From Bolinopsis microptera (Eukaryota; Ctenophora; Tentaculata; Lobata; Bolinopsidae), in assembly GCF_026151205.1 (NCBI RefSeq), contig NC_087077.1:9105983-9169982 (forward strand): 64,000 nt of DNA, given 5' to 3'. The notes beneath the pieces were generated by a model. That model made no database searches. It was not told the origin of the DNA and was given only the letters and a program-made list of their open reading frames with translations. This document shows, one piece after another, positions 2,616-38,611 of the stretch (its first letter is position 1; the number at the start of each line of letters is the position of its first letter). A program made the translations under genes and the position numbers.

Positions 2616-3405
2616 TTACATGATCTCTTGCCCACGAGGTGATTACAAAATAATCGACCACACTGCTTCCATTATATTTGTGACAGGTCATTTTTCCAGT
2701 GGTGTCCCCGAGGGTACGCCCATTAAGAATTTTCAGTTGGTTATTAATAACCATGTCAAGAAAATGTTGGCAGTGGGGTTCAGATATAGTCAGGTCAGAG
2801 TTGTTTCTGGGTTCTTCAATGTCATGTTCAAGTCCAATATCATTATAGATGTCATGCATGGCAGGTGCATTACAAGAGAGGATATAGTCTGGGAGTTTTC
2901 CAGTTCTTGCATTTGCATCGCCACACATGATAACTTCTCCTTTTTGACGTAGTCTAATACAGAGGGTGTCAAGAGCAGAGAAGGTCTTAGCAGTATAGTC
3001 TGGATATTTCTTGACATAGGACGAATATGCAGGGCTAATATAATAACATACTAAAAATAGATCAAAATCAAGCTTAAAAAAGTTTTTGTCAAGTTTAACA
3101 ACAATAATATCGTCAGATTCACTACAAGGAACACAGGAAACACCTTTTCTTAAATCATTTTCAGCAAGAATGCAGACCCCTCCTGAGCGAGAATTTTTGC
3201 GGTTGCTATTAAAGGAAAGATATCCTTCGATTTTAACCTGCTTCTTAGTTTCTTGGAGACATAGAATGTTTGCTTGTTTGAGGATTGTCAGAAATTCGTT
3301 ATTTTCAAATTTGTTAGATCCGTCTCCTGTACTGTCCTGAATGTTCCAGGACATTACAGCGACTTGATCTCGTGAGGAGTGTAGATTGTCAGGTATTTCA
3401 TTCAT
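2599..3405 (-). pseudogene. LINE copy A endonuclease part (frameshifted)
   Basis: Reads as 268 residues from an ATG at 3405. It has the exonuclease-endonuclease-phosphatase fold motifs expected of LINE endonucleases: MSWNIQD near the start, CLQETK (catalytic Glu), YISPAYSS, GDANARTG (Asp/Asn) and VVDYFVIT. The frame hits TAA at 2599-2601, just after SWARDHV, where the family normally continues into the linker and the reverse transcriptase. The continuation is found at once in another frame, so this is a frameshift rather than a natural end. The final Ser-Asp-His motif is not recognisable at the break. Confidence 0.85.
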
Positions 3406-5927: not shown

Positions 5928-7643
5928 ATGGCGAAATTAACATTACTGAGAGACTTCACCAGATTTCTAGACGAGGATGAGTTTCCTCATCGAGTAGAGG
6001 TTTACCTCGGGGACAAGAAGCTTGTCTGTTCTGGTATGATTATTGCTCAACAAAGTTCTGTTTTAGAACAAAAGATAAGGGACGAGCATGGTATTCTGAT
6101 GCTTGATGAGATGGTAGAAATTGGTTCAGATGGCCATAAATATGAATGCATGAGGCTCTTGTATGGTGCAGCCATTGAATTTAACTTGGACAACATTGAG
6201 ACTGTTCTTAAATTTTCAAGCATCTATATGGTGGAGGATATGTTTGTCAAAGCCATAAAATGGATCAAGCAGACTATGACCTGTCGTAATTTTCAGCTTT
6301 ATTATATGTTGCATAAACAAATGTGTTCTCCCTTTTTCGAAAGGTTTCAAAAGATCATAACAGAGTTTATAGGGAACAATGCTAACCAATGTGGTAATGA
6401 GATGAGTGAACTTCTCGACTCTAACCAAGACATTGACCAAGACTGTTTTATTGAAGTTTTGAAAAACCAACCAATGAATGGTGGTGTGTTACTTACCAGA
6501 TGGGTACGCAAGACAGAGAATATTCCAATCTTACTGAAGACAGCTGATGATCTAGATTTCTTTAAACTCTTTCCTGACCAGTCTGGATTCACTGTCTTCT
6601 TGAATATTCTGACTCAACAAAATGAATCCATGGAAACGATGAAAGCAGCACTCACCTTGCAACAAAATTACTTCACCAACTATACTAAACATAAGCATGA
6701 GTCTCCAGAAAAGGCTTCCAACTCAAAAGATGTGCCTGACGACAAAAGTGATACTAAGTCTACAGCTAGCAAAGCAAAATCCAAGGGTAAGAAGCAAAGT
6801 TCAAAAGAGACTGGAAATCAAAACTCCAAGCAGCAAAACACAAACAGTTCAAAAAATGAGCCTGATAATAGAAGTGAAAAGTCTTCCTCAAGCAAAGCTA
6901 AACCAGGTGCTAAGAAAACAAGTCCAAAGGAGTCTGCTGATAAAAATTCCAAGCAGCAAAACACAAAAAGTTCTAAAAATGAGCCTGATAATAGAGGTGA
7001 AAAGTCTTCCTCAAGCAAAGCTAAACCAGGTGCTAAGAAAGCAAGTCCAAAGGAGTCTGCTGATAAAAATCCCAAGCAACAAAATAAGAATGAAAAGAAA
7101 GATACCAAACCTACAACTGAAGGCACTACTGATGAAAAAGTTCTAACGGAAAGAAAGATCTTTGTAGGAAACATACCTGACAATGTAACAAATGAGGAAA
7201 TGGAGAAAGTATTCTCTGATTATGGTTTTGTTGTTGGAATAGATCTAGTACCTCTCAGAAAATGTGCATTTGTAGAATTCAGAAGTGTCAAAGCTTCAAG
7301 AAAAATTCTTAATCTTGTGAACGTTGATAAAGATGCCATAAAAATTATGGATACTACTGTGTACATAAAGCCTTTTAACCCCGACATAAATGCCAATCCT
7401 GAGAAAAAGGTATTTGTAGGAAATTTACCTGAAAATGCTGCAGTCAAAGACTTAAAATTGGCGTTCGCAACCTACGGACCTCTAAAAACAGTAACATTAG
7501 TCAGTCAAAGGAAGTGTGCTTTTTTAGAATTTGAAGATGTTAAAACTGTAAGGAAAATTCTGAATATGTTTGCTAATGGCCAAACATTTTCTGTGTTGGA
7601 TACAAAAGTGTATGTGAAACCTTTTGAAGTTCAGCAGGATTGA
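5928..7643 (+). CDS. BTB/POZ-like protein with two C-terminal RRMs (paralogue 1)
   Basis: 571 residues in one exon. Residues about 10-125 look like a BTB/POZ fold: a charged start (LLRDFTRFLDEDEFPHRVEV), LVCSGMIIAQQSSVLEQKI where BTB proteins have their H-x-A/S-P-V-F strand-helix, YECMRLLYGA, and a helical end (VEDMFVKAIKWIKQT). A helical middle runs to about 245. Residues 245-405 are Lys/Ser/Asn-rich and contain a 41-residue repeat. RRM1 starts at K410 (RNP2 IFVGNI, RNP1 RKCAFVEF). RRM2 starts at K494 (VFVGNL, RKCAFLEF). BTB domains usually dimerise or recruit CUL3 and RRMs bind RNA, so an oligomeric RNA-binding factor is the simplest inference. BTB plus RRM is not an architecture I recognise. 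The same order is found in the next two genes. Confidence 0.85.
   Translation: MAKLTLLRDFTRFLDEDEFPHRVEVYLGDKKLVCSGMIIAQQSSVLEQKIRDEHGILMLDEMVEIGSDGHKYECMRLLYGAAIEFNLDNIETVLKFSSIYMVEDMFVKAIKWIKQTMTCRNFQLYYMLHKQMCSPFFERFQKIITEFIGNNANQCGNEMSELLDSNQDIDQDCFIEVLKNQPMNGGVLLTRWVRKTENIPILLKTADDLDFFKLFPDQSGFTVFLNILTQQNESMETMKAALTLQQNYFTNYTKHKHESPEKASNSKDVPDDKSDTKSTASKAKSKGKKQSSKETGNQNSKQQNTNSSKNEPDNRSEKSSSSKAKPGAKKTSPKESADKNSKQQNTKSSKNEPDNRGEKSSSSKAKPGAKKASPKESADKNPKQQNKNEKKDTKPTTEGTTDEKVLTERKIFVGNIPDNVTNEEMEKVFSDYGFVVGIDLVPLRKCAFVEFRSVKASRKILNLVNVDKDAIKIMDTTVYIKPFNPDINANPEKKVFVGNLPENAAVKDLKLAFATYGPLKTVTLVSQRKCAFLEFEDVKTVRKILNMFANGQTFSVLDTKVYVKPFEVQQD
6834..7078 (+). repeat. 123-bp coding tandem repeat in BTB-RRM paralogue 1
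   Basis: Two near-identical 123-bp units (41 codons: KNEPDNR..., KSSSSKAKPGAKK..., SPKESADKN...) and a partial related unit upstream. The unit is a multiple of three, so copy number can change without breaking the frame. A long open stretch in a second plus frame (6697-7146) follows from the repetition and is not a gene. Confidence 0.85.
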
Positions 7644-8320
7644 ATGCTTTTGGAATCAGACATCAGAATACATTGTAGAATTTTACTTCTTCAATTGAAA
7701 TTGTACGATCTAAAATTTCATTTAACTTTCTAGTCTTCATTTTTAATTCATTCCAATTGGAATCCAACTTATAATTTGTATAGCTGTTTTAGGTTTAATG
7801 AAGACTTATGATATTCGTTTTTGGGGTTTATTCATATTTTCTGTTTTTTGTCTTTTTGACAAACTAATTTATATGTTATGATTTTACATGACAGTTGATT
7901 CTTATGTAGCTGTTCCAACAGCTGAATGCATGAAACATTTTTTTAACACAAACATGATCCTGTTAATCTGTTGTAGATTATTTTATATCTGATTTTACCT
8001 TGTAATTTCTTACGTAGAAATTTATCTAATAAATCTGTAACTATTTGTTTTTACACATTGTCTGTTACACCTATGACTCCAATAAAGTGTTATGTATCCT
8101 ACATACATAACAAATTGGTCTTCCAAGTGCTTTTTTAAGGACCAGTCAGATTGGAAATTACATCTTGTTCGGAAGTTTGTTATTAGATAATCGGCTTACT
8201 GTGATAATCATTAACACGGTTTCATTAAACCTCCCTAATCTTGTAAATTGTATTAGTTCAGGTAGCAAGTATAAGCTGATATGCTGAGAGGTGGTATATT
8301 TGGCTCTGTCATTCTTAAAG
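7644..8320 (+). other. 3' UTR of paralogue 1 and spacer to paralogue 2
   Basis: AT-rich. Two AATAAA poly(A) signals lie at 8028-8033 and 8081-8086, so the 3' UTR is about 450 bases. The short remainder holds the promoter or 5' UTR of the next paralogue; no element can be named. Confidence 0.6.
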
Positions 8321-9706
8321 ATGGAGAAACTGGATCTTGAAAGAGACTTCTCAAGATTTTTCGACAAGGAAGATTTTCCTCACACAGTTTCTGTATGTTT
8401 GGGTGGACAACAATTTGCTACCTGTTCTGGTATGATTTTGGCTCAGCAAAGTGTTATCATCGAGGATATAATATGTTCTAATGAAGGAGTTCTAACTTTG
8501 AATAATCTGGAAAACTACACTATTCCTGAAATTCTAGAATGCTTCCGGTATTTGTATGGAGCAGACATTACACTGTCCTTGGAAAATATTGGGACCATTC
8601 TGACCTTTTCCAGTCTCTATGAAATTAGAGATTTGTTTTCTTTAGCTTTTGATTGGATACTGAAAAACATAACTGTGAAATATCTAATCACCCTATTTGA
8701 AATTTCTTCTAATTTGTCCTGCAAACATAAACCTCTGCTTCTTCGTGTCTTGGATAACTTTCTCGCAGACAACATATCTGATGTTATGATGGAAGTGAGA
8801 AACCGTCTCAAAGATGGTAAAAGACTTGGTTCTGAGATCCTTTCTACAATACTGCAACAATCGTTTTCTAGCTGTGGTGATATTGTACTTGCTTGGATGG
8901 CTCAAGACCCATCTAATGTCTCATTTGTTTTGAATAATATGGATTCAATAGACATGTTTAAAAACTTCCCTCAGGCTGATGAATTTTCTAAACTCATCTC
9001 GTGTCTTTCTGCAAATGCAGACTCGTTGCAAACGATGGAGAAGCTCATTGAGTTGCAACAGCATTACTTTACAAAAGTATCTAAGACTCTTCAAAATGAA
9101 CCACCTGTCGCTGCTGTGGATGGTATCAATTATTGTGAATCAATATGTAATGCTTCTCATTTTTATAATCTCGATGAAGGACTCTTACATATTTTACAAT
9201 GTCGTTCTGATTATTCTTCCACTGTCTCTGTTTCGAATGTACCTGTATATGCTTCCAATGATGATGTTGTACTGGCCCTGTCAAAAGTTGGACCTGTCAA
9301 AAGTGTTATTCTGATTAACATCGATTGCTTCAACCAATTTGGTTTTGTCTCTTTTGAAGACAAATTTTCTGCCAAGGAATCTTTATCTTGTGATATCTTT
9401 ATTCATAGAAACAAACTAGCTGTTAAATCCTTTATCAAGCCTTCTAGTTCAAAATGTTCTGATAGAAAGTTATTCATTAAGAAAGTCCCCGTTCGTGCTT
9501 CCAAGAGGGACATAGAAAGATGCTTTTCTCCTTACGGACCAATAAAAGATATTGAAATTATCAGGCATAAAAAGTGTGCTTTTATAGAGCTTTTTGATGT
9601 CAAGATTGTTGCCATGTTGATTCATCTTTCAATGAATGGTGTCACATTGAGGATTTTAGGAAAAATTGTCTCAATCGAAAATTTTAAATTTAAGGTTGAG
9701 AAATGA
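8321..9706 (+). CDS. BTB/POZ-like protein with two RRMs (paralogue 2)
   Basis: 461 residues in one exon. I chose ATG 8321 (MEKLDLERDFSRFF) over the upstream in-frame ATG at 8291 because it aligns with the starts of the two sister genes. The BTB-like part (residues 1-120) has ATCSGMILAQQSVIIEDII and ILECFRYLYGADITL. There is no Lys/Ser-rich or acidic linker here: the helical region leads almost directly into RRM1 (from about residue 301, RNP2-like VSVSNV, RNP1-like NQFGFVSF). RRM2 starts at K383 (LFIKKV, KKCAFIEL). RNP2 of RRM2 has KK where an Asn-Leu/Ile pair is usual, so RNA contacts may be weakened. It is the most divergent of the trio and has the shortest linker. Confidence 0.85.
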   Translation: MEKLDLERDFSRFFDKEDFPHTVSVCLGGQQFATCSGMILAQQSVIIEDIICSNEGVLTLNNLENYTIPEILECFRYLYGADITLSLENIGTILTFSSLYEIRDLFSLAFDWILKNITVKYLITLFEISSNLSCKHKPLLLRVLDNFLADNISDVMMEVRNRLKDGKRLGSEILSTILQQSFSSCGDIVLAWMAQDPSNVSFVLNNMDSIDMFKNFPQADEFSKLISCLSANADSLQTMEKLIELQQHYFTKVSKTLQNEPPVAAVDGINYCESICNASHFYNLDEGLLHILQCRSDYSSTVSVSNVPVYASNDDVVLALSKVGPVKSVILINIDCFNQFGFVSFEDKFSAKESLSCDIFIHRNKLAVKSFIKPSSSKCSDRKLFIKKVPVRASKRDIERCFSPYGPIKDIEIIRHKKCAFIELFDVKIVAMLIHLSMNGVTLRILGKIVSIENFKFKVEK

Positions 9707-10227
9707 CAGTTTTAACGGAGCTAACTTACACAATATAGCATGACATTACTTATTATTTGTCTTAAAAAGTTTGAAGTTAGCACGAATAATTTCTTAAAGA
9801 ATTTCAATTTGGTGATGTATTAACATTTTCAAATTCTTTTTTAATCCTTGACTTCTGCTGTTTAAAATAAATGTGATGTGTTTAATTTTGGTTCAGTTAT
9901 CAACATGTATTTAAGTATTAGAAAATGTTTTATAAAATTTTCATTCAATTTGTGTGATTAAAACCTATTATACCTTTTTTATACTTGTAAGATGTAGTCC
10001 CATATTACTGTGTACTGTGTAGTGTGTAGTCTTTAAACTTTTGGTCACTCTAATGACGCCTTTAATTCTTCCAATATAATGTAAACTTGATTCATAAATT
10101 TCCTCATCACATGATGTGCTTTATTAATTTTAGCTTCAAATCTGATCACAGTTTTTTTTTTCAAATTTATATAACTGGATTATAATCTGATAAAATGCAG
10201 AGCACAGTTGTCAGGTGGTTTAAAGTG
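9707..10227 (+). other. 3' UTR of paralogue 2 and spacer to paralogue 3
   Basis: AT-rich non-coding spacer with an AATAAA signal at 9866-9871. No other feature is visible. Confidence 0.6.
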
Positions 10228-11661
10228 ATGGCACGGCTGAATCTTAATCGTGACTTCTCTAGATTTCTTGAAGATGAGACATTCCCCCATCGAGCTGAGG
10301 TTCATTTTGGTGATAAAGCATTGATATGTTCAGGAATGGTCCTTGCTCAGCAAAGTTCTATCATTGAGGGACTTATTCGTGAAGATTGTGGAGTTTTAAT
10401 GTTTGAGAAGATTGAAAATATTGGAGATATTGACCAGAAACTTGAGTGTATCAAATTTATGTATGGAGCTCCCTTGGCATTAACCCTCCAGAACATTGAT
10501 ACCGTCATTAAATTTGCCAGCTTGTATGAAGTTATGGATTTATTTCATAAATCAGTGCAATGGATAGAGAAGACAATATCTGCAAGAAGTTTGTTTGCAA
10601 TTAATGACATATCCAAATCATTCGAAAACGAAGATCACCAAACCAAGCTCAACAAAGTCATAAGTACATTTATCTCCAAGAACATAAACAAAGTTGGAGT
10701 AGAATTAGCTGAGAGAATTGCTCATGGTGATGAAGTTGAAATTGAGTTGTTTGTCTCTATTGTTAAACAAAACCCTTTCAATGGAGCAAACTTACTAGTA
10801 GAATGGACCAATAAATGCAACGAAAACAAACTTAGTATTCTGGAGAAAGTGGAGGAGTTTGACTTTGTTACTCTGTTTCCCGCCCAGGGAGATTTTACTG
10901 GTTTCGTTGCTCTGCTCTCGGAGGGATCAAGTTCGGTTGATGTTATGAAACAGGTTCTTGCTCTTCAACAAGACTACTTCGTAAAGAGTGCAGCCAAAGT
11001 GTTACAGCCCCCACAAGTAGCAGAAGAAAGTGCTGAAGAGGAGGTGGAAGAAGTGGAGGAAGAAGAAAACGAAGATGAAGATGAAGATGATAGTGAGGAA
11101 GAAAATGATGATGTTGCATCTATTGCATCGAGTGCTCGTACAGCCAACTCTACTGGCAAGCCTAAATCAAATCGGAGTGGAAGAAACAGACCAAAAAAAC
11201 AAAACCGTGAAGAAGGTTGGAAGTCAGTTAAAAATCCTGTGGAGAGTAGGCAGCAAAAACAGAAACACCATAATGTAAAGGATATGCAACCAAACAACAG
11301 AAATAAACCTGCGACAAACCAGCCGCAGTCAAAGGGTGCTAGCCAATTTAGGAGTTTCAATCAACAAACAAATGCAAATCCTAAGTCTGGCCTGGTGGGA
11401 AAGTGCAAAATATTTGTTGCAAATGTACCATCAAACGCTAAAGCTGTTGACATCAAGCCACCGTTCAAGTTTTGTGGTGCCATAGTGAACATAGATGTCC
11501 ATATGAACAAAAACATTGCATTTATCGAGTTTAGTAACGAAAAGGGTGCAACCACTGCACTGAGCGCTGCTAAGCGTGGGGTGAAGTTTACAGTGTTGGG
11601 TCAAACTGTAGTAGTCCGTGAGTACACTCCCGGAAAAGGAAGTAAATCATCTGTTGTTTGA
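10228..11661 (+). CDS. BTB/POZ-like protein with acidic linker and one RRM (paralogue 3)
   Basis: 477 residues in one exon. ATG 10228 (MARLNLNRDFSRFLEDETFPHR) is preferred to ATG 10195 by alignment with paralogues 1 and 2. Residues 1-120 are the BTB-like domain (LICSGMVLAQQSSIIEGLI, LECIKFMYGAPLAL). A helical middle follows and ends LQQDYFVK, a motif shared with paralogues 1 and 2. Residues about 266-300 are a Glu/Asp run, followed by a Lys/Arg/Asn/Gln-rich stretch. A single RRM starts at K394 (RNP2 IFVANV, RNP1 KNIAFIEF). Paralogue 1 has a basic linker here and paralogue 2 has none, so the linker evolves fast while the two ends are kept. No canonical AATAAA is evident in the following 650 bases. 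Confidence 0.85.
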   Translation: MARLNLNRDFSRFLEDETFPHRAEVHFGDKALICSGMVLAQQSSIIEGLIREDCGVLMFEKIENIGDIDQKLECIKFMYGAPLALTLQNIDTVIKFASLYEVMDLFHKSVQWIEKTISARSLFAINDISKSFENEDHQTKLNKVISTFISKNINKVGVELAERIAHGDEVEIELFVSIVKQNPFNGANLLVEWTNKCNENKLSILEKVEEFDFVTLFPAQGDFTGFVALLSEGSSSVDVMKQVLALQQDYFVKSAAKVLQPPQVAEESAEEEVEEVEEEENEDEDEDDSEEENDDVASIASSARTANSTGKPKSNRSGRNRPKKQNREEGWKSVKNPVESRQQKQKHHNVKDMQPNNRNKPATNQPQSKGASQFRSFNQQTNANPKSGLVGKCKIFVANVPSNAKAVDIKPPFKFCGAIVNIDVHMNKNIAFIEFSNEKGATTALSAAKRGVKFTVLGQTVVVREYTPGKGSKSSVV

Positions 11662-25738: not shown

Positions 25739-26431
25739 ATGGAAGAACGTGTAGGTTATTACCAGACATCACCAGACTATGTCAAATTGAAACTAGCTAA
25801 AGAAGAACCTAAAAAACCAGTTGGATTGGCCAGGTCAGAGTTGATAAAAATGATTATTTTCCTATTCCTTGGTCTTGGATGTCTTGCAGTAACTGCATTT
25901 GTGTATACTCAGGCCAAAATAACGGCACGGGAGGAACATCAACTTCTCCTCTCAAACAGAACAGAGTCTAACCAACCCATGGAGGATTCTCAGACAGAAC
26001 CTCTCTTCTTCAAACCGTACCATGTGGTGGTTATAAGGATCCACTCACCTCTCAATTTCTACTTAAACGATATCCTCAAACAACTGAATGAGCAAAGCTA
26101 TGGGATCAGTGATACAGTTCCCACAGGTGCGCCAAATGATGCTGAATGGTCTTCAATTTGGACAGAAACTACAATAACTAGCTCATCAGAAAGCACTAGC
26201 TCACCAGAAAGCACTAGCTCACCAGAAAGCACTAGCTCACCAGAAAGCACTAGTAGCTCTTCTTACACATCCACATTTACATCATGGCTGTCCTACGCTC
26301 CCACCACTGCCTATCTGGGCGCTGGTGCATGGATGCAGACACAACTGGACTGGATTCAGGAACAGATAGGCTGGTTTGATCAAAACTTGGGTTTTGGAAT
26401 GTTCCCAACTAAAGATCTGCAAATATATTAA
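25739..26431 (+). CDS. Small single-pass membrane protein with Ser/Thr-rich repeat
   Basis: 230 residues in one exon. There is no signal peptide. A charged N-terminal stretch of about 36 residues precedes one hydrophobic helix (residues 37-57, MIIFLFLGLGCLAVTAFVY), so a type II orientation is likely. An N-glycosylation sequon (N73-R-T) follows the helix. Residues about 148-172 contain four copies of a six-residue repeat (STSSPE, 18 bp each), expected to be heavily O-glycosylated if extracellular. The C-terminus is aromatic-rich (WMQTQLDWIQEQIGWFDQ). I do not recognise the family. Codon use and the clean single ORF favour a real gene, but there is no homology support. Confidence 0.6.
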   Translation: MEERVGYYQTSPDYVKLKLAKEEPKKPVGLARSELIKMIIFLFLGLGCLAVTAFVYTQAKITAREEHQLLLSNRTESNQPMEDSQTEPLFFKPYHVVVIRIHSPLNFYLNDILKQLNEQSYGISDTVPTGAPNDAEWSSIWTETTITSSSESTSSPESTSSPESTSSPESTSSSSYTSTFTSWLSYAPTTAYLGAGAWMQTQLDWIQEQIGWFDQNLGFGMFPTKDLQIY

Positions 26432-26895: not shown

Positions 26896-29130
26896 ATGTT
26901 AGCAATACTGTGGCACCAGATCTTAATATTAATCGCATGCTGTTTGTATTCAATTATCATCATGAAAAAGACCGACAAGAAACTCGACAGGAGATCGGAC
27001 CTCTTTAATTCCACGTATCGAGGGTGCAAGTCAGCTGGATCCACCCCTATTTCAAGCCCTGTTTTAAGCCGAAAAGTCACTAGCAGAATACATAATAGGA
27101 ACACAGAGCCAGATGCAGATCTAACATCTGATGGAGACTTTGTAGATGTAGAGAGCAACGAACCAGCATCGATCCCAGGAACGCTACTCTCTAAGTGTCC
27201 CTGCTTTGTAGAGTCAAAGAACCCTGCAATCTTATGTGTTACTTGTAAGCAGACCTTCCATTCTAACTGTGTTAACCTTGCTGGCCTCACAGCAACTTCT
27301 CTAAAGAAGCTCAGCACTTCCTGGAAGTGCCCGGACTGCTTTATCTTTCCTTACACAAGAAGATTGAAGGAGGAGGAAAAATCCAAAGCGTTAACAGAAT
27401 TCTTTAGCAATATTTCTAAGATATCAAAGTGTAATGAGGAACTCAAAGAAAGTACAACAACCATAGAGTTCTTCAACGAGCATATCAAACACCTCATACT
27501 CAAGGAGGACAGTTGTTTCAAAGAACACTCCAAAAGAACAGAACGATTAGTGACTGGAATTGAAGATATCACTGAAGACATAGCTTCTATCAAGGGTGTA
27601 CTTACGAAAGTAAAGGAGAGTGGCTCAGCTCTTGAGACAACCAGCAACTCTCTCAAACAGGAGATTGATGGCCTGAAGGACTCTCTCAAAAATATACCTA
27701 TGACAGAGCAACCTCCGACTAACAGCAGTACTTTCGATCATGTTGACAACCTGATGACCCAGATCAAAGTGCAATTGGAAAAGATCAATGATCATGTATG
27801 TCCCTCAACGTCCACACAGAACTTTGATGAAGGTGAACTACGTTACAATGAATCTATCCTTATGACCCCTAACACTACTTCTCCTCACTTTGCTGCATCT
27901 CAAATTCCTGAAGGCCCTGCATGTGACCCTTATCTAACTTATCAGGAAGATATAGTGCCTGTTGAGCTTCACAGCAAACTTATAAAGCTGCTGGAGGACA
28001 ATAGTGCGGATTTTTCTTCGGTTGGTGGCAGCAGGGATGTTGTCTACTTTGGTGAACATGGATACTGGTACACAGGAGCCTATCATCAGGCAAAGGAAAC
28101 TCCACCGGAGATACAAGATCTTTTGGACTGTGTGCGTCCCTCTCTCCCCAATAGGAAGAGCTGGCTGAACTCTTGCCTTGTTACAAGATATACAGGCAAT
28201 AGTAGCCATATCCCCCAACACTGCGACAATGAGGTTCTTATTGACCCAGAATCGATAATAGTCACTGTGTCCCTTGGTGAAGAACGCACAATAAAGTTCA
28301 CACATAAGTCGACTGAAAAGTCCTTAAAGCTCAAAGATGGAAGTGTATACGTGATGTCCAGAATGTCCCAAGAAATCTGGAATCATGGTATTGAACCCCT
28401 CGCTAATGAAGAAGATGGCGAGGAATCTGAAGAGAAAACTTCTGTGAGGTACAGCTTTACCTTTAGGCATATTGCGCCTTTCTACAAAAATAGCACAGTG
28501 TTAATTGGAGACTCAAACACTAAGTACATTAAATTTGGTAAAGATGTTGGAACTCTAGGAAAATGGGTTCCCGGTAAGCGAATGTGGGCTGCTAAAATCG
28601 ACGATATTCCTGCTCCCAAAGACATAGGCCCCTTTCGGAACATTGTTATACATACGGGAATCAATGATATTCGAGATGATTCCAACAGACCATCCACTAG
28701 AACACTTATTGCTAAGCTTAAGAAGAAATGTTGTGAAATTCAGCAATTTTATCCTAATAGTAAAGTTCATATTAGTTTACTCTTGCCCACCAAATCACAG
28801 TTTGTTAACTCACGTATAGGGGAGTTAAACAGTTTAATTGTCGACATGGTTTATAATAGGAAAAACATGTTTATTATAGATAACTCTGTACTAGGTTCTG
28901 TTAACGGATGTATGCCCTCTAAGTATGGTAGATTCTCACGTGATGGCACACCATTGGTCAATGATGTTGTTCATCTCGGGAGAGAAGGCCTGAAAATATT
29001 TTGTATGAACATAAAACGGTGTATTGTACAACGTGGTGGAAGTCAGTCCACGGAAAGATTTAAAGGTGGAAATGGTGACTATAGGAGTGCCCTAAGTAGG
29101 GGTAGTACGGGTGATATCTTACCGATATGA
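26896..29130 (+). CDS. LINE ORF1: PHD finger, coiled coil, AlkB-like dioxygenase, SGNH hydrolase
   Basis: 744 residues; translation may start at M1 or at M23 (MKKTDKKLD). A PHD finger has ligands C101, C103, C114, C117, H122, C125, C145 and C148. A helical, coiled-coil-like stretch follows to about 320. Residues about 350-530 fit the AlkB family of Fe(II)/2-oxoglutarate dioxygenases: H442-x-D444 with distal H497 as iron ligands, VTVSLGEERTIKF, GSVYVMSRMSQEIWNHGI, and R518/R524 in the AlkB-type RxxxxxR. Residues 534-705 are an SGNH/GDSL-type hydrolase: GDSN (S540), GIND (N590, D591) and D690-x-x-H693. SGNH esterases are known in CR1-type ORF1 proteins and PHD fingers in some LINEs. An added AlkB domain suggests repair or demethylation of the element's RNA or cDNA, which is inference. 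Confidence 0.85.
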   Translation: MLAILWHQILILIACCLYSIIIMKKTDKKLDRRSDLFNSTYRGCKSAGSTPISSPVLSRKVTSRIHNRNTEPDADLTSDGDFVDVESNEPASIPGTLLSKCPCFVESKNPAILCVTCKQTFHSNCVNLAGLTATSLKKLSTSWKCPDCFIFPYTRRLKEEEKSKALTEFFSNISKISKCNEELKESTTTIEFFNEHIKHLILKEDSCFKEHSKRTERLVTGIEDITEDIASIKGVLTKVKESGSALETTSNSLKQEIDGLKDSLKNIPMTEQPPTNSSTFDHVDNLMTQIKVQLEKINDHVCPSTSTQNFDEGELRYNESILMTPNTTSPHFAASQIPEGPACDPYLTYQEDIVPVELHSKLIKLLEDNSADFSSVGGSRDVVYFGEHGYWYTGAYHQAKETPPEIQDLLDCVRPSLPNRKSWLNSCLVTRYTGNSSHIPQHCDNEVLIDPESIIVTVSLGEERTIKFTHKSTEKSLKLKDGSVYVMSRMSQEIWNHGIEPLANEEDGEESEEKTSVRYSFTFRHIAPFYKNSTVLIGDSNTKYIKFGKDVGTLGKWVPGKRMWAAKIDDIPAPKDIGPFRNIVIHTGINDIRDDSNRPSTRTLIAKLKKKCCEIQQFYPNSKVHISLLLPTKSQFVNSRIGELNSLIVDMVYNRKNMFIIDNSVLGSVNGCMPSKYGRFSRDGTPLVNDVVHLGREGLKIFCMNIKRCIVQRGGSQSTERFKGGNGDYRSALSRGSTGDILPI

Positions 29131-32100
29131 CCTCAATAAACTTCAATATTACAAGAGAGAGATGTCCAGGTTGTGATAGCAATGTACTAAGCCATCATAA
29201 AATCATAATATGTGAGAGTTGCGATACATTATATCATGCCAAATGTTCTGAACAGAGTTTTAAATTTGATCATGTTAAACAAATGTGGCACTGCAGTCAG
29301 TGTTACGCCTTCAAATCCCAAAGGTACAATCCTTTTAACTCAATTATTTATGACAAATATGATCCCAACACTGTAGAAAGAGACGAGGATATGGAGACTA
29401 TTTCAAACATTCTAAAAGACTGTAGGTATTATAACATGACAAATTTCAACCGGCTGTCAAAAAACATACTTAACCATAACAAGCCGTTTATATCTATTGT
29501 GTTTAACAACATTGATGGGAACGCATCTAACTTTGACAGCTTTATTACTGATATGAGTCAATATGATGAGAAATTTGCAGTTATTGCGCTAGCTGAAACA
29601 AACATTAATGAGGAAAATAAAGATCTATACAAAATTGATGGTTACAGCAGTGAGTACAACTCTAAAACTGATGGGAAAAAGAAAGGTAGTGGCCTTGGTA
29701 TATATATTGACAATCAGTACCAATACAGCCGAATCGAAAAGTTATGTAAATGCTCTGACAATCTTGAAACACTTTTCGTTGAGATCACTAACACAGAGGT
29801 TCCACAGATTGCTGGTGTTGTTTACAGGCCCCCTAGTGGTGATATTCAAGATGCACTTGCTGAGCTTGATGTGTTGATGAAATTTCTACCGTCTAATAAT
29901 GTAGCCTTGACAGGTGACTTCAATGTTGATCTTTTGGCCCAGGGACGAAACATAGCTGAATTTGAACAAACTATCTACAGTAACAATTTAATCCCTTTGA
30001 TATCGATTGCCACCCATGCCAAGCCGGGTTGCAATGAAAGCTTAATTGATAATATTTTAGTGAACTCTACTGAGCGTGTGTTAGGATCTGGAATTCTTGA
30101 ATCCAAGATTTCCCATCATAACCCCATCTTCTGTTTCATATCGTGTAATATTAAAGAGAGTTCAAATACTGCCAAACTTAAACCTAAGTATGATTACTGT
30201 GAGTCTAATATAGAAAGTTTCCTTAATGATATTGGAAAGGATATCTACCAATCGAACTTTTCGTATGATGAGGAAGGTTTTGAAAAATTTGTCGAAACTG
30301 TCCACGAAAAAATCGAACTGAATTTCAAAGTGGACTGTACTGCTGGTTTTCAATCAAAACGCAATAGATTGATGAATCCATGGATCACTTCTGCGTTAAT
30401 TAAATCTGTGTTTACTAAAGGCTTTCACTACAAGCGATGGAAGGCTTCGTGTACCAAAATCAACCCATTAGGTGAGGAAACTTTATATCTTAAGTATAAG
30501 GAGTATCGTTCTATCTTAAACAAAGCTATAAAATCTGCGAAAAAAGCCCACTATGGGAAAAAATTTGAACTTGCTAAAGGAAATATTAAAAAAACCTGGG
30601 AATTGATCAACGAACTCAGGGGTAAATCTAAAAAAGATATAAAAGCATCATTCTTAATTGATGGTAGAATTGTAACTGAACGCCGTGAGATTGCCAACGG
30701 ATTTAACATCTACTTCTCGTCTATTGCTCGTAATCTTAATTCAAAAGTTCAATCTTCTGTACCATCTCGTACGGTAACTGATGGCAATTTCAATAAAACG
30801 AAGTTTAAACAATACCTCAAGGGCAGAGAAAGAATAGTGAACTCTTTTTTTCTCAGCCCCTGTGACGAGGAAGAGATAAGTAAAATTATTGGTAGCCTTG
30901 AAAATGGGAAGGCAAGTGATATCTCTGTTAAAGTCTTGAAAAAGAGTGTAAATTATCTGTCTGGTCATATCTCTAGATTCTTTAATTGGTTCTTGGACAA
31001 TGGGGTCTTTCCAAACAAGCTTAAAACGGGCTCTATTACACCAATTTATAAAAAAGGAGACTCACGATGCCTTGATAACTATCGACCTGTTTCTACATTA
31101 CCGATATTTGGCAAAATACTTGAAAAAATAATTTATAATAGGTTATATAATTACCTCAGTGCTATGAACGTGATTTATGATCGACAATTTGGTTTTAGAA
31201 AACAACACTCAACATCTCATGCCGTAAACTATTCTGTCAATAAAATACTTAATGAGATTGAACAGAAAAATCATGTAATTGGAATATTTATTGATCTAAG
31301 TAAAGCATTTGACACAATTGAGCACGATAAACTCCTGCATAAACTTGAACACTATGGAGTAAGAGGTATTGCACTAAAAACTCTTGCTAGCTATCTAACA
31401 AACCGTAGCCAAGTAACTTCTTTTCAAACTGAAAAATCGGACAAGTGTTCAGTTGAGTATGGTGTACCCCAGGGGTCAGTGTTAGGACCTCTACTATTTC
31501 TGATTTATATAAATGATATTGTGAGCTCCTCAAGTTTGGCTGAATTCGTCCTGTTTGCTGATGATACAAATATTTTTGTGATAGGTCGTTCAGCACAGGA
31601 AGCTTTTGAAAAAGCTAATCATGTAATGAAACAGGTCAGTAACTATATGGAGTCTAACAAGTTACATATAAATGCAGGGAAAAGTTGTTTTATGCATTTT
31701 CAGCCAGGTTTGTCAAGAGCAACACAGACCTGTGCTAGAACACGGCCCTTTAACAGGAATCTAACGATTTCAATAGATGGCAAAAAGCTAGAAAAAGTTC
31801 AATGTACAAAATTTCTTGGGGTGATAATAGACGAACAGCTATGTTGGGAACCACATCTTAATCATTTATCTTTAAAGCTGAACTCCAGTATTGTATCGAT
31901 TAAGAGAATTTGCAAATTCATTCCCAAATCTGAATATTTGAAACTATACAATGCTCTTTTTATGTCACATCTTAGCTATTGTATAAGTTGCTGGGGTGGG
32001 ATCCCTAAACATAAGCTGAATAAAATCTTTGCTATTCAAAAACGATGTATACGACTGCTATTTGGTAACATTCCCAATTTTGATCATAAAGAATACTACT

Positions 32101-32558
32101 TAACCTGTGCACGTTCAAGAACTTATAACGAACATATGGCTAAAAAGAACTACTGTCTTGAACACACTAAACCGCTATTCACTGAGCAGAAAATTATGAA
32201 CCTGGAGAATCTGCACATGTACCATACATTTATGGAGCTATTCAAAATTCTTAAATTTGATGTCCCCCAGTCGATTAAAGATCTTTTCAAGTTCTGTCCT
32301 AGAAATGAAAAACTTCGTCTGATTGTCCCATTACTGAGGTTAGATATCTCCCAACAGAACTTTTTGTACACCTCTACGAAAATATGGAATGATCTCATCC
32401 CCTATGTATTCGAAATATGTGATGCTAATGTAGATGGGATAATAATCCCGGGGTCTTCCAAAAATTCAGACTTATCAGCCTCGTCAGGTATTATTAAATC
32501 TAACCTTAAAAAGCACTTGCTATCCCTCCAAAATCGAGGTGACCCTAATATATGGTAA
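29127..32558 (+). CDS. LINE ORF2: PHD finger, endonuclease, reverse transcriptase
   Basis: 1143 residues. A second PHD finger stands at the N-terminus (C13, C16, C29, C32, H37, C40, C56, C59). The apurinic-type endonuclease spans about 119-345: FNNIDGN, LAETN (Glu), YRPPSGD, TGDFNVDLL, LIDNILVN and SHHNPI near the end, where SDH is usual. The reverse transcriptase spans about 580-870: SITPIYKKGDSRCLDNYRPV, RQFGFRKQHST, GIFIDLSKAFDTIEHDKL, GVPQGSVLGPLLF, FADD (D812, D813) and KFLGVIIDEQ. The C-terminal region has SHLSYCISCWGG and TSTKIWNDLIP. Length and order are as in CR1/jockey-type LINEs. The start overlaps the end of ORF1 by four bases. Confidence 0.95.
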   Translation: MTSINFNITRERCPGCDSNVLSHHKIIICESCDTLYHAKCSEQSFKFDHVKQMWHCSQCYAFKSQRYNPFNSIIYDKYDPNTVERDEDMETISNILKDCRYYNMTNFNRLSKNILNHNKPFISIVFNNIDGNASNFDSFITDMSQYDEKFAVIALAETNINEENKDLYKIDGYSSEYNSKTDGKKKGSGLGIYIDNQYQYSRIEKLCKCSDNLETLFVEITNTEVPQIAGVVYRPPSGDIQDALAELDVLMKFLPSNNVALTGDFNVDLLAQGRNIAEFEQTIYSNNLIPLISIATHAKPGCNESLIDNILVNSTERVLGSGILESKISHHNPIFCFISCNIKESSNTAKLKPKYDYCESNIESFLNDIGKDIYQSNFSYDEEGFEKFVETVHEKIELNFKVDCTAGFQSKRNRLMNPWITSALIKSVFTKGFHYKRWKASCTKINPLGEETLYLKYKEYRSILNKAIKSAKKAHYGKKFELAKGNIKKTWELINELRGKSKKDIKASFLIDGRIVTERREIANGFNIYFSSIARNLNSKVQSSVPSRTVTDGNFNKTKFKQYLKGRERIVNSFFLSPCDEEEISKIIGSLENGKASDISVKVLKKSVNYLSGHISRFFNWFLDNGVFPNKLKTGSITPIYKKGDSRCLDNYRPVSTLPIFGKILEKIIYNRLYNYLSAMNVIYDRQFGFRKQHSTSHAVNYSVNKILNEIEQKNHVIGIFIDLSKAFDTIEHDKLLHKLEHYGVRGIALKTLASYLTNRSQVTSFQTEKSDKCSVEYGVPQGSVLGPLLFLIYINDIVSSSSLAEFVLFADDTNIFVIGRSAQEAFEKANHVMKQVSNYMESNKLHINAGKSCFMHFQPGLSRATQTCARTRPFNRNLTISIDGKKLEKVQCTKFLGVIIDEQLCWEPHLNHLSLKLNSSIVSIKRICKFIPKSEYLKLYNALFMSHLSYCISCWGGIPKHKLNKIFAIQKRCIRLLFGNIPNFDHKEYYLTCARSRTYNEHMAKKNYCLEHTKPLFTEQKIMNLENLHMYHTFMELFKILKFDVPQSIKDLFKFCPRNEKLRLIVPLLRLDISQQNFLYTSTKIWNDLIPYVFEICDANVDGIIIPGSSKNSDLSASSGIIKSNLKKHLLSLQNRGDPNIW

Positions 32559-32974
32559 CTAATCTATATTATATCTCAAATTCTACATCTGGTACGGCTC
32601 TGCACACATGATATCTCTCTCTGCCATGAAACATGGCTAACCTTTCAAACTATGATTTAAAACATAAACCTAAACTAAAACTCAACTGGGCTCTCCTATG
32701 TCACCAAACTAGACCAATAAGCAATTTTAGCTTAGATAATTATATTTTTCTATATTTGTATAATAAGTTTTATATTGACGTAGTGGATGGTTGAGGGGGT
32801 TTCAAGCACAGGTCACTCTCAAATCCTAAAGATAAGCAGTGGCCTTCGGCACTTGAAACCTCTTCAAACCTCCCCTGATTTATTTATTATTGATATTGTT
32901 TGATTGTGCCGTAAAAATAAATATTTGTTTTATTAAATAAATATTTGTTTTATTAAATAATATTCAAATAAAAC

Positions 32975-34853: not shown

Positions 34854-35134
34854 CTTCCACACTTGCATTCTACCGTCCTACTGCACTCAGTCCTAGTTAG
34901 GTGTCAGCACTACACTACATATGCCGGCCTACCATCCCACATCCTCACTTCCACACTTGCATTCTACCGTCCTACTGCACTCAGTCCTAGTTAGGTGTCA
35001 GCACTACACTACATATACCGGCCTACCATCCCACATCCTCACTTCCACACTTGCATTCTACCGTCCTACTGCACTCAGTCCTAGTTAGGTGTCAGCACTA
35101 CACTACATATACCGGCCTATCATCCCACATCCTC
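34854..35134 (+). repeat. 94-bp minisatellite, three copies
   Basis: Three units of 94 bp starting at 34854, 34948 and 35042 (CTTCCACACTTGCATTCTAC...). They are nearly identical, differing at a few bases such as ATATGCC/ATATACC. C/T-rich on the plus strand and non-coding. Confidence 0.95.
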
Positions 35135-35719
35135 GGCTTTGATCAAATAATTTGAGGCACAGTGTATAACACTATAACTATAGTTGGCATTTCTGTTGGA
35201 CAAAAACGTTTTGGCAATATATTGGCAGTTGGGATAGTGCTAAGCACTCTAAACTATAAAGGTGCATGGGAATGTTGGATTATGGTATGGTTGTCATATT
35301 GCTGGTGTGGCGTCCGCAATATTATCAGTCGCCTTTGAAAATCTACTACAGATTTTATTTCTGTATATCACTATACAGTTCCTCTTTAGAAAAAGTGCAT
35401 GTGACAAGTAACGAGATAAGGATGCTCTAGGATCAGGAGCGACAAATGATCAATTGTTTTAGACGTGAGGCGTTCTGCAGTAACGGCCCTAGCGAACAGG
35501 GGGATGGTTGTTCGCTTGAGTACTATGATGCGGTTATACAAGTCTGGCAAAACAATTTGTGACCTGCCTATTGGCCGGGCGCCGCCGTAGACTCAACACA
35601 TGGTGTGTGGGGTATTTACCTCGGGCACACACCTTAATCTCTCGACCGGCGGGTCACACCCAAATCTCCTGCTCCAACTCTTTCAAAGGCTGGTACCCTA
35701 CTACTATGTGGCCAGAAGG

Positions 35720-36565: not shown

Positions 36566-38611
36566 GTGGAAGTTAAAAACCGCTTTTCCATACTTGAAAA
36601 GGATGATCAGACGGCAACAGAAAGGTACCAATGCTTTATTGATGCGAATAGGACAACTTCTCGACTTTTACTACCTGAAAAGGAGAAAAAGAAAAGATGT
36701 AAAATCTCAGCGACTCCAAGTGTTGAGATTGCCAGGCTGAAGCTGAGGGAATGTAGCATAAAATACCACTCAGATGCTACAGAAGACAACCGAATAGCTG
36801 TTCAAGAGGGCAAACAGAAGCTAGGCGATGCTTATCAAGCAGCCAAAGAGCACCTGCTGGAGGGGCAGGTCCGGGAACTGGAGGAAGCAAGTTGGCAGGG
36901 CAGACATGCTAAAAGCTGGACCATGATCAACAAGATCACAGGTAAAGCTCCATCATATACTGGCAAAATCAAGGGAAACTCACCAACGGAAAGGGTTCAG
37001 AAATGGAAGGACTATTTTGCTACTCTTCTCGGCTCACCACCGACGGTAGAGAACGCGGAAGAGGATATTGATCCAGTCCACCCACCTCTGAATATCGGAA
37101 CAGAACCGTTTACGTTGGATGAGTACAGGAAAGCAAAGTCCAGCATAAAGGAAGGGAAAGCATGGGGTGACGACAACATAGCCCCAGAAGTCTTAAAACG
37201 ATGCGACCTTGATCAAATTGTCTTAGACTTCTGTAACAATGCTCTATTGAAAGGTGAGAAACCAGACCAATGGTCAACTGCCAACATCATACCAATTCCA
37301 AAGAAGGGCGACCTTAGCGAACCAATGAACTATCGGGGAATAAGCTTGTCATCCCTAGTTGCCAAGTCTCTAAACAAAATGGTTCTAAACCGGTTGAAGC
37401 CAGAAATCGAGACAATTCTGCGTAGAAACCAGAATGGATTCAGACCAGGAAGGTCAACAACTCAACAGATATTGGTACTGAGACGTCTTATAGAGGGTGT
37501 CAAGAGTCAGAAACTGCCAGCTGTTCTGACATTTATAGACTTTAAGAAGGCTTTCGACAGTGTACATTGTGGGAAAATGCTAAAGATTCTAGAAGCTTAC
37601 GGCATTCCAGTCAAAATCGTGAAGCTTAGACGGCTCATGTACGAGAAGACAATGGCCAAAGTCCTAACTCCAGACGGAGAAACTGAATTGTTCGAGATAC
37701 TTGCAGGTGTGTTACAGGGTGATACCTTAGCACCTTACCTCTTTGCAATAGTCATCGACTACTGTATGAGGCAAGCCATAGGCGATGATGCGGAGCGACT
37801 TGGACTCACCCTCGAACGTAGAAAAAGCAGAAGAGTGGGGCCCAAGATCATCACCGATGTGGACTTTGCAGATGATTTAGCACTTATATCTGAGGACATG
37901 GACAAGGCTAACGAGTTCCTGCTCAGAGTAGAATCGGCGGCAGCAAGCGTGGGACTACACATAAACGAAGGCAAGACCAAGGTCATGACACTGAATATGG
38001 AGGATCGATCTAGCGACCTACAAAGTCGATCCGGGGAAGCCATAGAAAATGTAGATGATTTCATCTACTTAGGCTCCTGGATTGAGAGCACAGATAGGGA
38101 GATAAGGGTAAGAAAGGGAAAAGCGTGGGGTGCCCTACATAGACTGAAGGATATCTGGAAATCCAAACTCTCAAAGAGCCTAAAGATTAGATTGTTCATA
38201 GCGGCTTGTGAATCAGTACTGCTCTACGGATCAGAAACCTGGACACTGACAAAGGCTCAAGAGAAAAGTTTGGACGGGACATACACAAAGATGTTGCGTA
38301 TGGTGCTGGGTATCTCATGGAAGGACAAGGTCAGCAATATAACTTTGTATGGTAGCCTCCCAAGGCTGTCAAACAAGTTACGAAGCGGGAGATTAAAAAT
38401 GGCGGGACACTGCATCCGACATCCTGAGCTACTTGCCAGTGATTTAGTCTTATGGGAACCTACGCACGGTAGAGCACAGCAAGGCCGACCAAGACAAAGC
38501 TACTTGTCTATGTTACTGAAGGAAGTTGGGACAAACTCTAAAGAGGAACTGCGAACCCTGATGCGGGACAGGGATATATGGAGGGGGTTTTCTGGCGTAG
38601 ATCGGACTTAG
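36566..38611 (+). pseudogene. RTE-type reverse transcriptase
   Basis: 681 residues from an internal ATG, in the same frame as the second half of the endonuclease, so only the TAA at 36527 separates them. RT motifs: NIIPIPKKGDLSEPMNYRGI, NGFRPGRSTTQQI, FIDFKKAFDSV, GVLQGDTLAPYLF and DFADDLAL (D436, D437). The C-terminus has LYGSETWTLTKAQEK and KMAGHCIRHPE, typical of RTE proteins. The domain looks undamaged, but the polyprotein is broken. Confidence 0.85.

What the first reader, a model, noticed from the sequence alone, without database searches (positions are those of the whole stretch)
26896..32558. LINE with PHD finger, AlkB-type dioxygenase and SGNH hydrolase in ORF1 and a second PHD finger in ORF2
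Seen: PHD ligands C101-C148, the AlkB triad H442/D444/H497 with R518/R524, and the SGNH set S540/N590/D690/H693 in one ORF. A second PHD finger stands at ORF2 residues 13-59, and endonuclease and RT are intact. Established: AlkB enzymes reverse alkyl damage or demethylate RNA and DNA; SGNH esterases occur in CR1-type ORF1; PHD fingers read histone tails. Inference: the element targets chromatin with PHD fingers and cleans or demethylates its RNA or cDNA with its own AlkB domain. This parallels AlkB domains carried by some RNA viruses.
Basis: partly seen in the sequence, partly recalled or inferred. Interest (0 to 1): 0.88.

Follow-up and report, generated by a model that had tools for sequence, protein, structure and literature searches.

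The report
Comb-jelly jumping gene carrying AlkB demethylase
A LINE jumping gene, in what is very probably a comb-jelly genome, carries its own AlkB-type enzyme of the kind that strips methyl damage from DNA and RNA, next to an esterase; related enzyme pairs sit in other jumping genes of that genome, including a Helitron, which suggests a shared repair or counter-defence tool.

Summary
Window ~26954-32960 holds a two-ORF LINE. ORF1: PHD-like finger, linker, AlkB dioxygenase, SGNH hydrolase; ORF2: PHD-like finger, endonuclease, RT. AlkB is certain: PF13532 9e-19; family profile against ALKBH3 4e-30; model matches ALKBH2/ALKBH3/AlkB (TM up to 0.72-0.75). H442/D444/H497/R518/R524 are kept in 34 of 35 other loci, down to ~27% identity; dN/dS 0.12 (one pair). 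SGNH rests on profile, fold and residues. New: 151 AlkB matches in the genome; nine related ORF1 families (six tied to an RT) all run AlkB-SGNH, with or without PHD; six giant frames hold AlkB with a Helitron Rep domain, and the one read has SGNH too. LINE-type AlkBs separate from host ALKBH2/ALKBH3. The host fits the ctenophore Bolinopsis microptera by size and karyotype. Best mechanism (inferred): an ALKBH3-like enzyme removes Watson-Crick-face methyl lesions from single-stranded intermediates so they can be copied. Activity is untested.

The parts
26954..32960 (+). LINE copy, 5'-truncated; ends approximate to a few bases
   Evidence: other copies match from ~26950 to ~32956; seven near-identical copies share ~1.23 kb more upstream
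26947..26953 (+). candidate target-site duplication TATTCAA, left
   Evidence: read by eye; only 7 bp, so a candidate
32961..32967 (+). candidate target-site duplication TATTCAA, right
   Evidence: read by eye; only 7 bp
26962..29130 (+).
27196..27339 (+). ORF1 PHD-like finger (residues 101-148 in the 744 numbering)
   Evidence: Pfam 1.2e-4, below cut-off; all eight ligands in the representatives of 5 of 5 PHD-type families, though families C and D give no PHD hit at E 0.1
27361..27909 (+). linker, probably coiled coil
   Evidence: weak coiled-coil-type Pfam hits only; dN/dS 0.39 for residues 156-350
27946..28485 (+). AlkB-type 2OG-Fe(II) dioxygenase; H442, D444, H497, R518, R524
28486..29037 (+). 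SGNH hydrolase; S540, G588, N590, D690, H693
   Evidence: dN/dS 0.04
29127..32558 (+). ORF2, 1143 aa; its ATG overlaps the ORF1 stop (ATGA)
29163..29303 (+). ORF2 PHD-like finger (residues 13-59)
   Evidence: Pfam 0.0011, below cut-off; C13 C16 C29 C32 H37 C40 C56 C59 invariant in four families
29484..30134 (+). APE-type endonuclease; N128, E157, Y233, D264, N266, D308, H331 kept, SDH Asp replaced by His330 (motif assignment recalled)
31050..31829 (+). reverse transcriptase with FADD
   Evidence: RVT_1 3.6e-39
32782..32876 (+). 3'UTR inverted repeat, 25-nt arms, 80% complementary
   Evidence: role not tested
32915..32960 (+). 3' tail: two exact 20-bp units plus AAATAA

Best explanation
It is one copy of a young LINE family whose ORF1 protein has four parts: PHD-like finger, linker, AlkB dioxygenase and SGNH hydrolase. 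Shown: AlkB and SGNH are real, folded as expected in prediction, and under purifying selection; the AlkB-SGNH pair occurs in nine related ORF1 families of the genome (six tied to an RT) and in the one Helitron frame that was read. Inferred: the AlkB domain acts like ALKBH3 on single-stranded nucleic acid, taking off Watson-Crick-face methyl groups (m1A, m3C and like lesions) that stop polymerases. In the LINE it would clean the RNA template and first cDNA strand within the RNP; in Helitrons the single-stranded DNA intermediate. The esterase would, as proposed for ZfL2-1 ORF1p, bind or act on membrane lipids during RNP assembly or transport. The PHD-like fingers in ORF1 and ORF2 would help dock on histone tails at insertion.
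For: AlkB identity. Closest solved relatives of the 11-domain profile are ALKBH3 (3.8e-30) and ALKBH2 (4.2e-27), far ahead of ALKBH5 (0.002). Catalytic residues kept in 34 of 35 other loci and in 11 of 11 aligned non-host domains. dN/dS window vs L011: AlkB 0.12, SGNH 0.04, linker 0.39, N-terminus with PHD 0.69. In 6 of 6 AlkB hits with frames over 2000 aa, a Helitron Rep match has the same frame length and strand and lies 3.2-3.9 kb downstream; Helitrons move without an RNA template but with single-stranded DNA (recalled). AlkB removal of RT-stopping methyl bases restores reverse transcription in vitro (PMC7968990, passages). SGNH; ZfL2-1 precedent PMC3905857 (passages).
Against: No enzyme activity, expression or substrate data. 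The N of R-x-N-x-T-F-R, present in the five ALKBH2/ALKBH3-type rows (human, host, L039), is S in 11 of 11 element domains, so substrate or cofactor handling may differ. The host has its own ALKBH2 and ALKBH3, so the element may not need one for repair. PHD scores are below Pfam's cut-off. Nothing here shows that base lesions limit these elements. SGNH was read in one of the six Helitron frames only.
Confidence: 0.5

Rival explanations
1. Epitranscriptomic evasion: the AlkB domain erases m6A from the element's RNA so that host m6A readers do not silence or degrade it.
For: The orchid Ty3/Gypsy AlkB demethylates m6A in vitro (PMC9289625, abstract and passages). The host has MT-A70 family matches, 7 over the cut-off.
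Against: The profile is far closer to ALKBH3/ALKBH2 than to ALKBH5. m6A helps, and ALKBH5 suppresses, human L1 (PMC7873242, abstract). Helitron frames carry the domain too though Helitrons have no RNA template (recalled).
Confidence: 0.2
2. DNA-level counter-defence: the enzyme removes a repressive or damaging methyl mark (6mA, or 3mC left by cytosine methyltransferases) from element DNA.
For: AlkB domain in both a retro-element and Helitron frames; ALKBH2 and ALKBH3 act on DNA (recalled; the solved complexes listed are with DNA).
Against: Only one long DNA_methylase frame and one short fragment were found, so 5mC machinery is not clear here (exon-split genes can be missed). 6mA was not examined.
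Confidence: 0.15
3. Host-directed effector: AlkB and SGNH modify host RNA or lipids rather than element nucleic acid.
For: The esterase of ZfL2-1 ORF1p binds negatively charged phospholipids (PMC3905857, passages).
Against: Nothing found in the sequence points to a host target; no test was made.
Confidence: 0.1
4. The AlkB fold is used only to bind single-stranded nucleic acid in the RNP, and catalysis is dispensable.
For: Esterase-type ORF1ps lack defined RNA-binding domains (PMC3905857), and Pfam shows none in this ORF1.
Against: Iron and 2OG ligands are invariant in 11 of 11 divergent domains, which binding alone would not demand.
Confidence: 0.05

Closest known systems
Esterase-type ORF1 of LINEs (ZfL2-1, PDB 4c1b)
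   Same: SGNH esterase in ORF1, EN-RT in ORF2; the family profile finds 4c1b at 2.3e-6
   Different: no AlkB and no PHD in ZfL2-1 as described (PMC3905857, passages); 4c1b is not among the 50 fold matches shown. The main text of the 448-element survey PMC4120745 holds no word beginning with oxygenase or dioxygenase
PHD-bearing CR1/L2 LINEs (PMC4120745)
   Same: PHD in ORF1, and PHD at the start of ORF2, are described (passages)
   Different: in the table read, PHD stands alone or with RRM, CCHC or Tnp22, not with AlkB or esterase
Orchid Ty3/Gypsy element with AlkB-type 2-ODD domain (PMC9289625)
   Same: a retrotransposon carrying an AlkB-family domain; active on m6A in vitro
   Different: LTR element, plant, domain in its own second ORF, close to m6A-type AlkB proteins; no SGNH or PHD in the passages read
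Human ALKBH3 / ALKBH2
   Same: fold (best TM 0.75 and 0.72 by target length), HxD...H and R...R
   Different: R-x-S-x-T-x-R instead of R-x-N-x-T-F-R; separate branch at 96/97
AlkB domains of RNA viruses
   Same: fold match among the top of the BFVD list; a mobile genome carrying its own AlkB
   Different: the named RNA-virus matches are mostly replicases or polyproteins; sequence relation not tested

Membership tests
AlkB 2OG-Fe(II) dioxygenases | Pfam 2OG-FeII_Oxy_2 over its cut-off | tested here: met
   68.8 bits, cut-off 31.2
AlkB 2OG-Fe(II) dioxygenases | AlkB double-stranded beta-helix fold | tested here: met
   model pLDDT 78.7, pTM 0.60; ALKBH2 3rzl E 1.5e-13, TMt 0.72; ALKBH3 8jnr TMt 0.75
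AlkB 2OG-Fe(II) dioxygenases | HxD...H iron triad and two 2OG arginines | tested here: met
   34 of 35 other loci; 11 of 11 aligned domains
AlkB 2OG-Fe(II) dioxygenases | demethylase activity | not testable with these tools
   needs assay
SGNH hydrolases | single-sequence Pfam score over the cut-off (a detection threshold, not a defining trait) | tested here: not met
   window protein E 0.28; of 10 other proteins 6 at 4.8e-6 to 1e-3, one at 0.045, three without a hit; all under the cut-off
SGNH hydrolases | family profile and fold | tested here: met
   profile 3.6e-10 to 2hsj; model pLDDT 81.0, PAF-AH 1bwp E 1.1e-7, TM 0.64-0.65; the top-ranked hit is a scaffold titled as designed
SGNH hydrolases | S, G, N, H (and D) catalytic residues | tested here: met
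   34 of 35 other loci; in the 10-row set G, N, H in 10 of 10, D in 9 of 10, Ser block not cleanly aligned outside the PHD-type families
SGNH hydrolases | esterase activity | not testable with these tools
   needs assay
PHD finger | C4HC3 ligands | tested here: met
PHD finger | Pfam score over cut-off (a detection threshold) | tested here: not met
   22.5 and 19.4 bits, cut-off 24; no hit at E 0.1 in families C and D; hence 'PHD-like'
PHD finger | binding of histone tails | not testable with these tools
   needs assay
APE-type non-LTR retrotransposon (LINE) | EN-RT ORF2 behind ORF1; dispersed copies with variable 5' truncation and common 3' end | tested here: met
CR1/L2 lineage | RT phylogeny within the lineage | not tested
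   no reference RTs at hand; any placement is by architecture only

The most novel reading that the evidence does not exclude
A transposon-specific AlkB lineage, coupled to an SGNH hydrolase, is a portable module that has passed between unrelated mobile elements (PHD-type LINEs, PHD-less LINEs, Helitrons) of a ctenophore and frees their single-stranded intermediates of blocking or repressive methyl groups, so that methylation-type damage or defence has been a long-standing limit on transposition in that lineage. That the elements share AlkB is shown; that Helitrons share the pair is shown in the one frame read; the direction of transfer and the role are inferred.
Probability: 0.35. Interest if true: 0.88.

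Novelty: new variant of a known kind. Interest (0 to 1): 0.74.

Why it matters
In the searches made (open-licence papers only, judged by the titles and abstract starts listed and the passages opened) no LINE or Helitron with an AlkB domain turned up. If the enzyme is active, these elements carry their own eraser of nucleic-acid methylation, and its presence in retrotransposons as well as rolling-circle DNA transposons points to a common bottleneck (single-stranded intermediates) rather than to RNA control alone. It makes testable whether base methylation limits transposition. It also warns that many AlkB matches in such a genome can be transposon domains rather than host repair genes.

Tried and rejected
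Rejected: chance motif match (conserved in divergent families); recent capture of the host ALKBH2 or ALKBH3 by this LINE (host genes lie on the other side of a 96/97 split; the Helitron row and L049 are long branches, so their places are unsure); decayed domain (dN/dS 0.12). The L049-type frames (AlkB at the N-terminus, coiled coil behind) were read only in part, so their element type is open. The AlkB list was 150 scored of 587 candidates (the window's own copy is not among the rows shown) and the RT list 150 of 6502, so linkage counts are lower bounds. Clade (CR1, L2 or other) was not tested by RT tree. Results against or weak for my reading: no PHD hit in families C and D; no SGNH Pfam hit in B and C; 4c1b not among the 50 fold matches shown; window vs L008 has only 1 synonymous and 2 non-synonymous changes in AlkB, too few to read.
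Full report
Observation. The two ORFs are open as described. Pfam finds 2OG-FeII_Oxy_2 in ORF1 at 9.4e-19, a PHD at 1.2e-4, and in ORF2 RVT_1 at 3.6e-39, an endonuclease at 2.3e-4 and a PHD at 0.0011. The two PHD scores and the endonuclease score are just under Pfam's cut-offs, and the SGNH model alone gives 0.28, so these needed more evidence.

Bounds of the element. The genome that holds the window (G000) was searched. Other copies match the window only from about 26950 to about 32956, while seven near-identical copies (L002, L004-L009) share about 1.23 kb more upstream with each other (L011 and L015 share it at about 89%; L010 shares 91 bp and L003 gave no match there). The 3' end has two exact 20-bp units, and TATTCAA on both sides is a candidate target-site duplication. 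ORF1 and ORF2 overlap as ATGA. Ten of the 44 ORF2 matches listed (40 candidates scored of 7455) are full-length, at 100% identity (rounded) and without stops, the window included, so the family is young.

AlkB. A profile of 11 AlkB domains from this genome finds ALKBH3 at 3.8e-30, ALKBH2 at 4.2e-27, ALKBH8 at 9e-15, AlkB at 8e-12 and ALKBH5 only at 0.002. The model of residues 340-744 (pLDDT 78.7, pTM 0.60) matches ALKBH2 (E 1.5e-13, TM 0.72 by target length), AlkB (best 0.72) and ALKBH3 (best 0.75, rmsd 2.8), and in the viral library AlkB domains of RNA viruses and giant viruses among many unnamed entries. H442, D444, H497, R518 and R524 are kept in 34 of 35 other loci (L002-L036) of four PHD-type families; the exception, L036, belongs to a stretch with six stops. 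Between the window and L011 the domain has 21.5 synonymous and 10.5 non-synonymous changes, dN/dS 0.12; SGNH 0.04; linker 0.39; N-terminus with PHD 0.69 (Nei-Gojobori). The other two copies compared domain by domain, L002 and L008, have too few changes to read (AlkB: 0 and 0; 1 and 2).

SGNH. A 10-sequence profile hits SGNH hydrolases at 3.6e-10 and the crystallised LINE ORF1 esterase 4c1b at 2.3e-6. The model (pLDDT 81.0, pTM 0.79) matches PAF acetylhydrolase and other GDSL-type hydrolases, E 1e-7 to 1e-5, TM about 0.6. Entries titled as designed scaffolds appear in both lists, at rank 1 in the fold list; they were not counted on. 4c1b is not among the 50 fold matches shown.

Spread in the genome. 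PF13532 gives 151 matches from 150 scored candidates of 587; 150 are listed. Frame lengths recur exactly (551, 593, 611, 646, 676 aa and others), which speaks for repeats. Among the rows are the host's ALKBH2 (L037, 4e-60) and ALKBH3 (L038, 3e-40). Nine ORF1 representatives were read to their end: five with PHD-like ligands (A window, B L025, C L030, D L033, F L048) and four without a PHD hit (L043, L045, L046, L047); in all nine an SGNH-type stretch follows AlkB, though Pfam sees SGNH at 1e-3 or better in only five of these nine (L048, L043, L045, L046, L047), and in L046 the SGNH Asp is not at its place. An RT is tied to six of the nine: in A to D it was read, in L043 and in rows that score like L047 it lies 2.5-2.8 kb behind AlkB by coordinates. 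For F (L048) only the start of a following frame was seen, and for L045 and L046 no RT was tied, so 'LINE' there rests on likeness of ORF1. Over the whole list, 27 of 150 AlkB hits have an RT hit within 6.5 kb downstream on the same strand, against a mean of 0.375 and a maximum of 3 in 200 random placements, although the RT list was only the top 150 of 6502 candidates.

Helitrons. In six of six AlkB hits with frames over 2000 aa a Helitron_like_N match has the same frame length and strand and lies 3.2-3.9 kb downstream, so they share one frame; a seventh AlkB lies 3.9 kb from a Rep frame, and an eighth near a 59-aa fragment. In L041, the one such frame that was read in part, an SGNH domain (4.8e-6) precedes AlkB (2.1e-22). 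SGNH in the other five frames was not read.

Origin of the AlkB. In a 16-row tree the nine ORF1 domains and the Helitron one separate from human and host ALKBH2/ALKBH3, L039 and L049 at 96/97. The Helitron row and L049 are long branches, so whether the Helitron AlkB came from a LINE is open. All 11 element domains, L049 included, have S in place of the N of R-x-N-x-T-F-R.

ORF2. In four families (five rows) the eight PHD ligands, the endonuclease residues N128, E157, Y233, D264, N266, D308, H331 and FADD are invariant, but the residue before the last His, Asp in the usual SDH motif (recalled), is His in all.

Host. G000 has 264.65 Mb in 232 contigs, of which C1-C13 hold 258.07 Mb or 97.5% (lengths; sum mine). 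Bolinopsis microptera is given as 265 Mb, 346 scaffolds, 13 chromosomes (PMC11797021, table passage), with 13 scaffolds holding 97.23% (PMC10232365, passage). This is a match of numbers, not a sequence test.

Mechanism. Shown: domains, folds in prediction, conservation, occurrence in several element types. Inferred: an ALKBH3-like eraser of Watson-Crick-face methyl lesions acting on single-stranded intermediates. AlkB restores reverse transcription past such lesions in vitro (PMC7968990, passages). The m6A rival has the orchid precedent (PMC9289625) but must face that m6A helps human L1 (PMC7873242, abstract). The host has MT-A70 matches; cytosine methyltransferase evidence is thin.

Known work. 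Seen as passages found by search terms, some with the abstract: PMC4120745, PMC3905857, PMC9289625, PMC11797021, PMC10232365, PMC7968990, PMC9921365, PMC8857917, PMC11294593, PMC10161547. Seen as abstract and outline: PMC7873242. The listings (15 of 202 listed in the last) showed no AlkB in a LINE or Helitron as far as titles, abstract starts and opened passages tell; Repbase notes and subscription journals were out of reach, so a prior mention is possible. [quoted passage not shown]

Noticed in passing
G000 frames at C9:11088986, C9:15872038, C3:14437531, C10:16880070, C12:2473156, C12:8333845 (L041 reads part of the frame at C12:2469580-2473755): Giant Helitron frames carry an AlkB domain; the one read also has an SGNH domain before it.
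   Followed up: partly
L049; rows of similar kind C1:21681291, C2:22919128, C9:7330260: Another class of large frames (777-843 aa) with AlkB; in L049 it is N-terminal with a coiled coil behind, and it falls on the ALKBH2/3 side of the tree, so perhaps a separate capture. Element type unknown.
   Followed up: partly
L039 1063-1950 and 2662-3438: An ALKBH3-like ORF is followed about 0.7 kb on by an ORF that looks SGNH-like by eye, on the same strand.
   Followed up: no
window 6-3405 (-): A further retroelement: RT frame and separate endonuclease frame.
   Followed up: no
window 36566-38608 (+): RT frame with a DUF6451 match below its cut-off, from another retroelement.
   Followed up: no
window 5928-11658 (+): Three successive ORFs with RRM domains, possibly tandem duplicates.
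   Followed up: no
window 34854-35135: Three 94-bp tandem units, 97-99% identical.
   Followed up: no
window 26177-26266, inside ORF 25739-26431: 18-bp repeats coding a Ser/Thr/Pro/Glu-rich stretch in an ORF with no Pfam match.
   Followed up: no
ORF2 H330 (window 30114-30116): Endonuclease SDH motif reads S/T-H-H in four of four families.
   Followed up: partly
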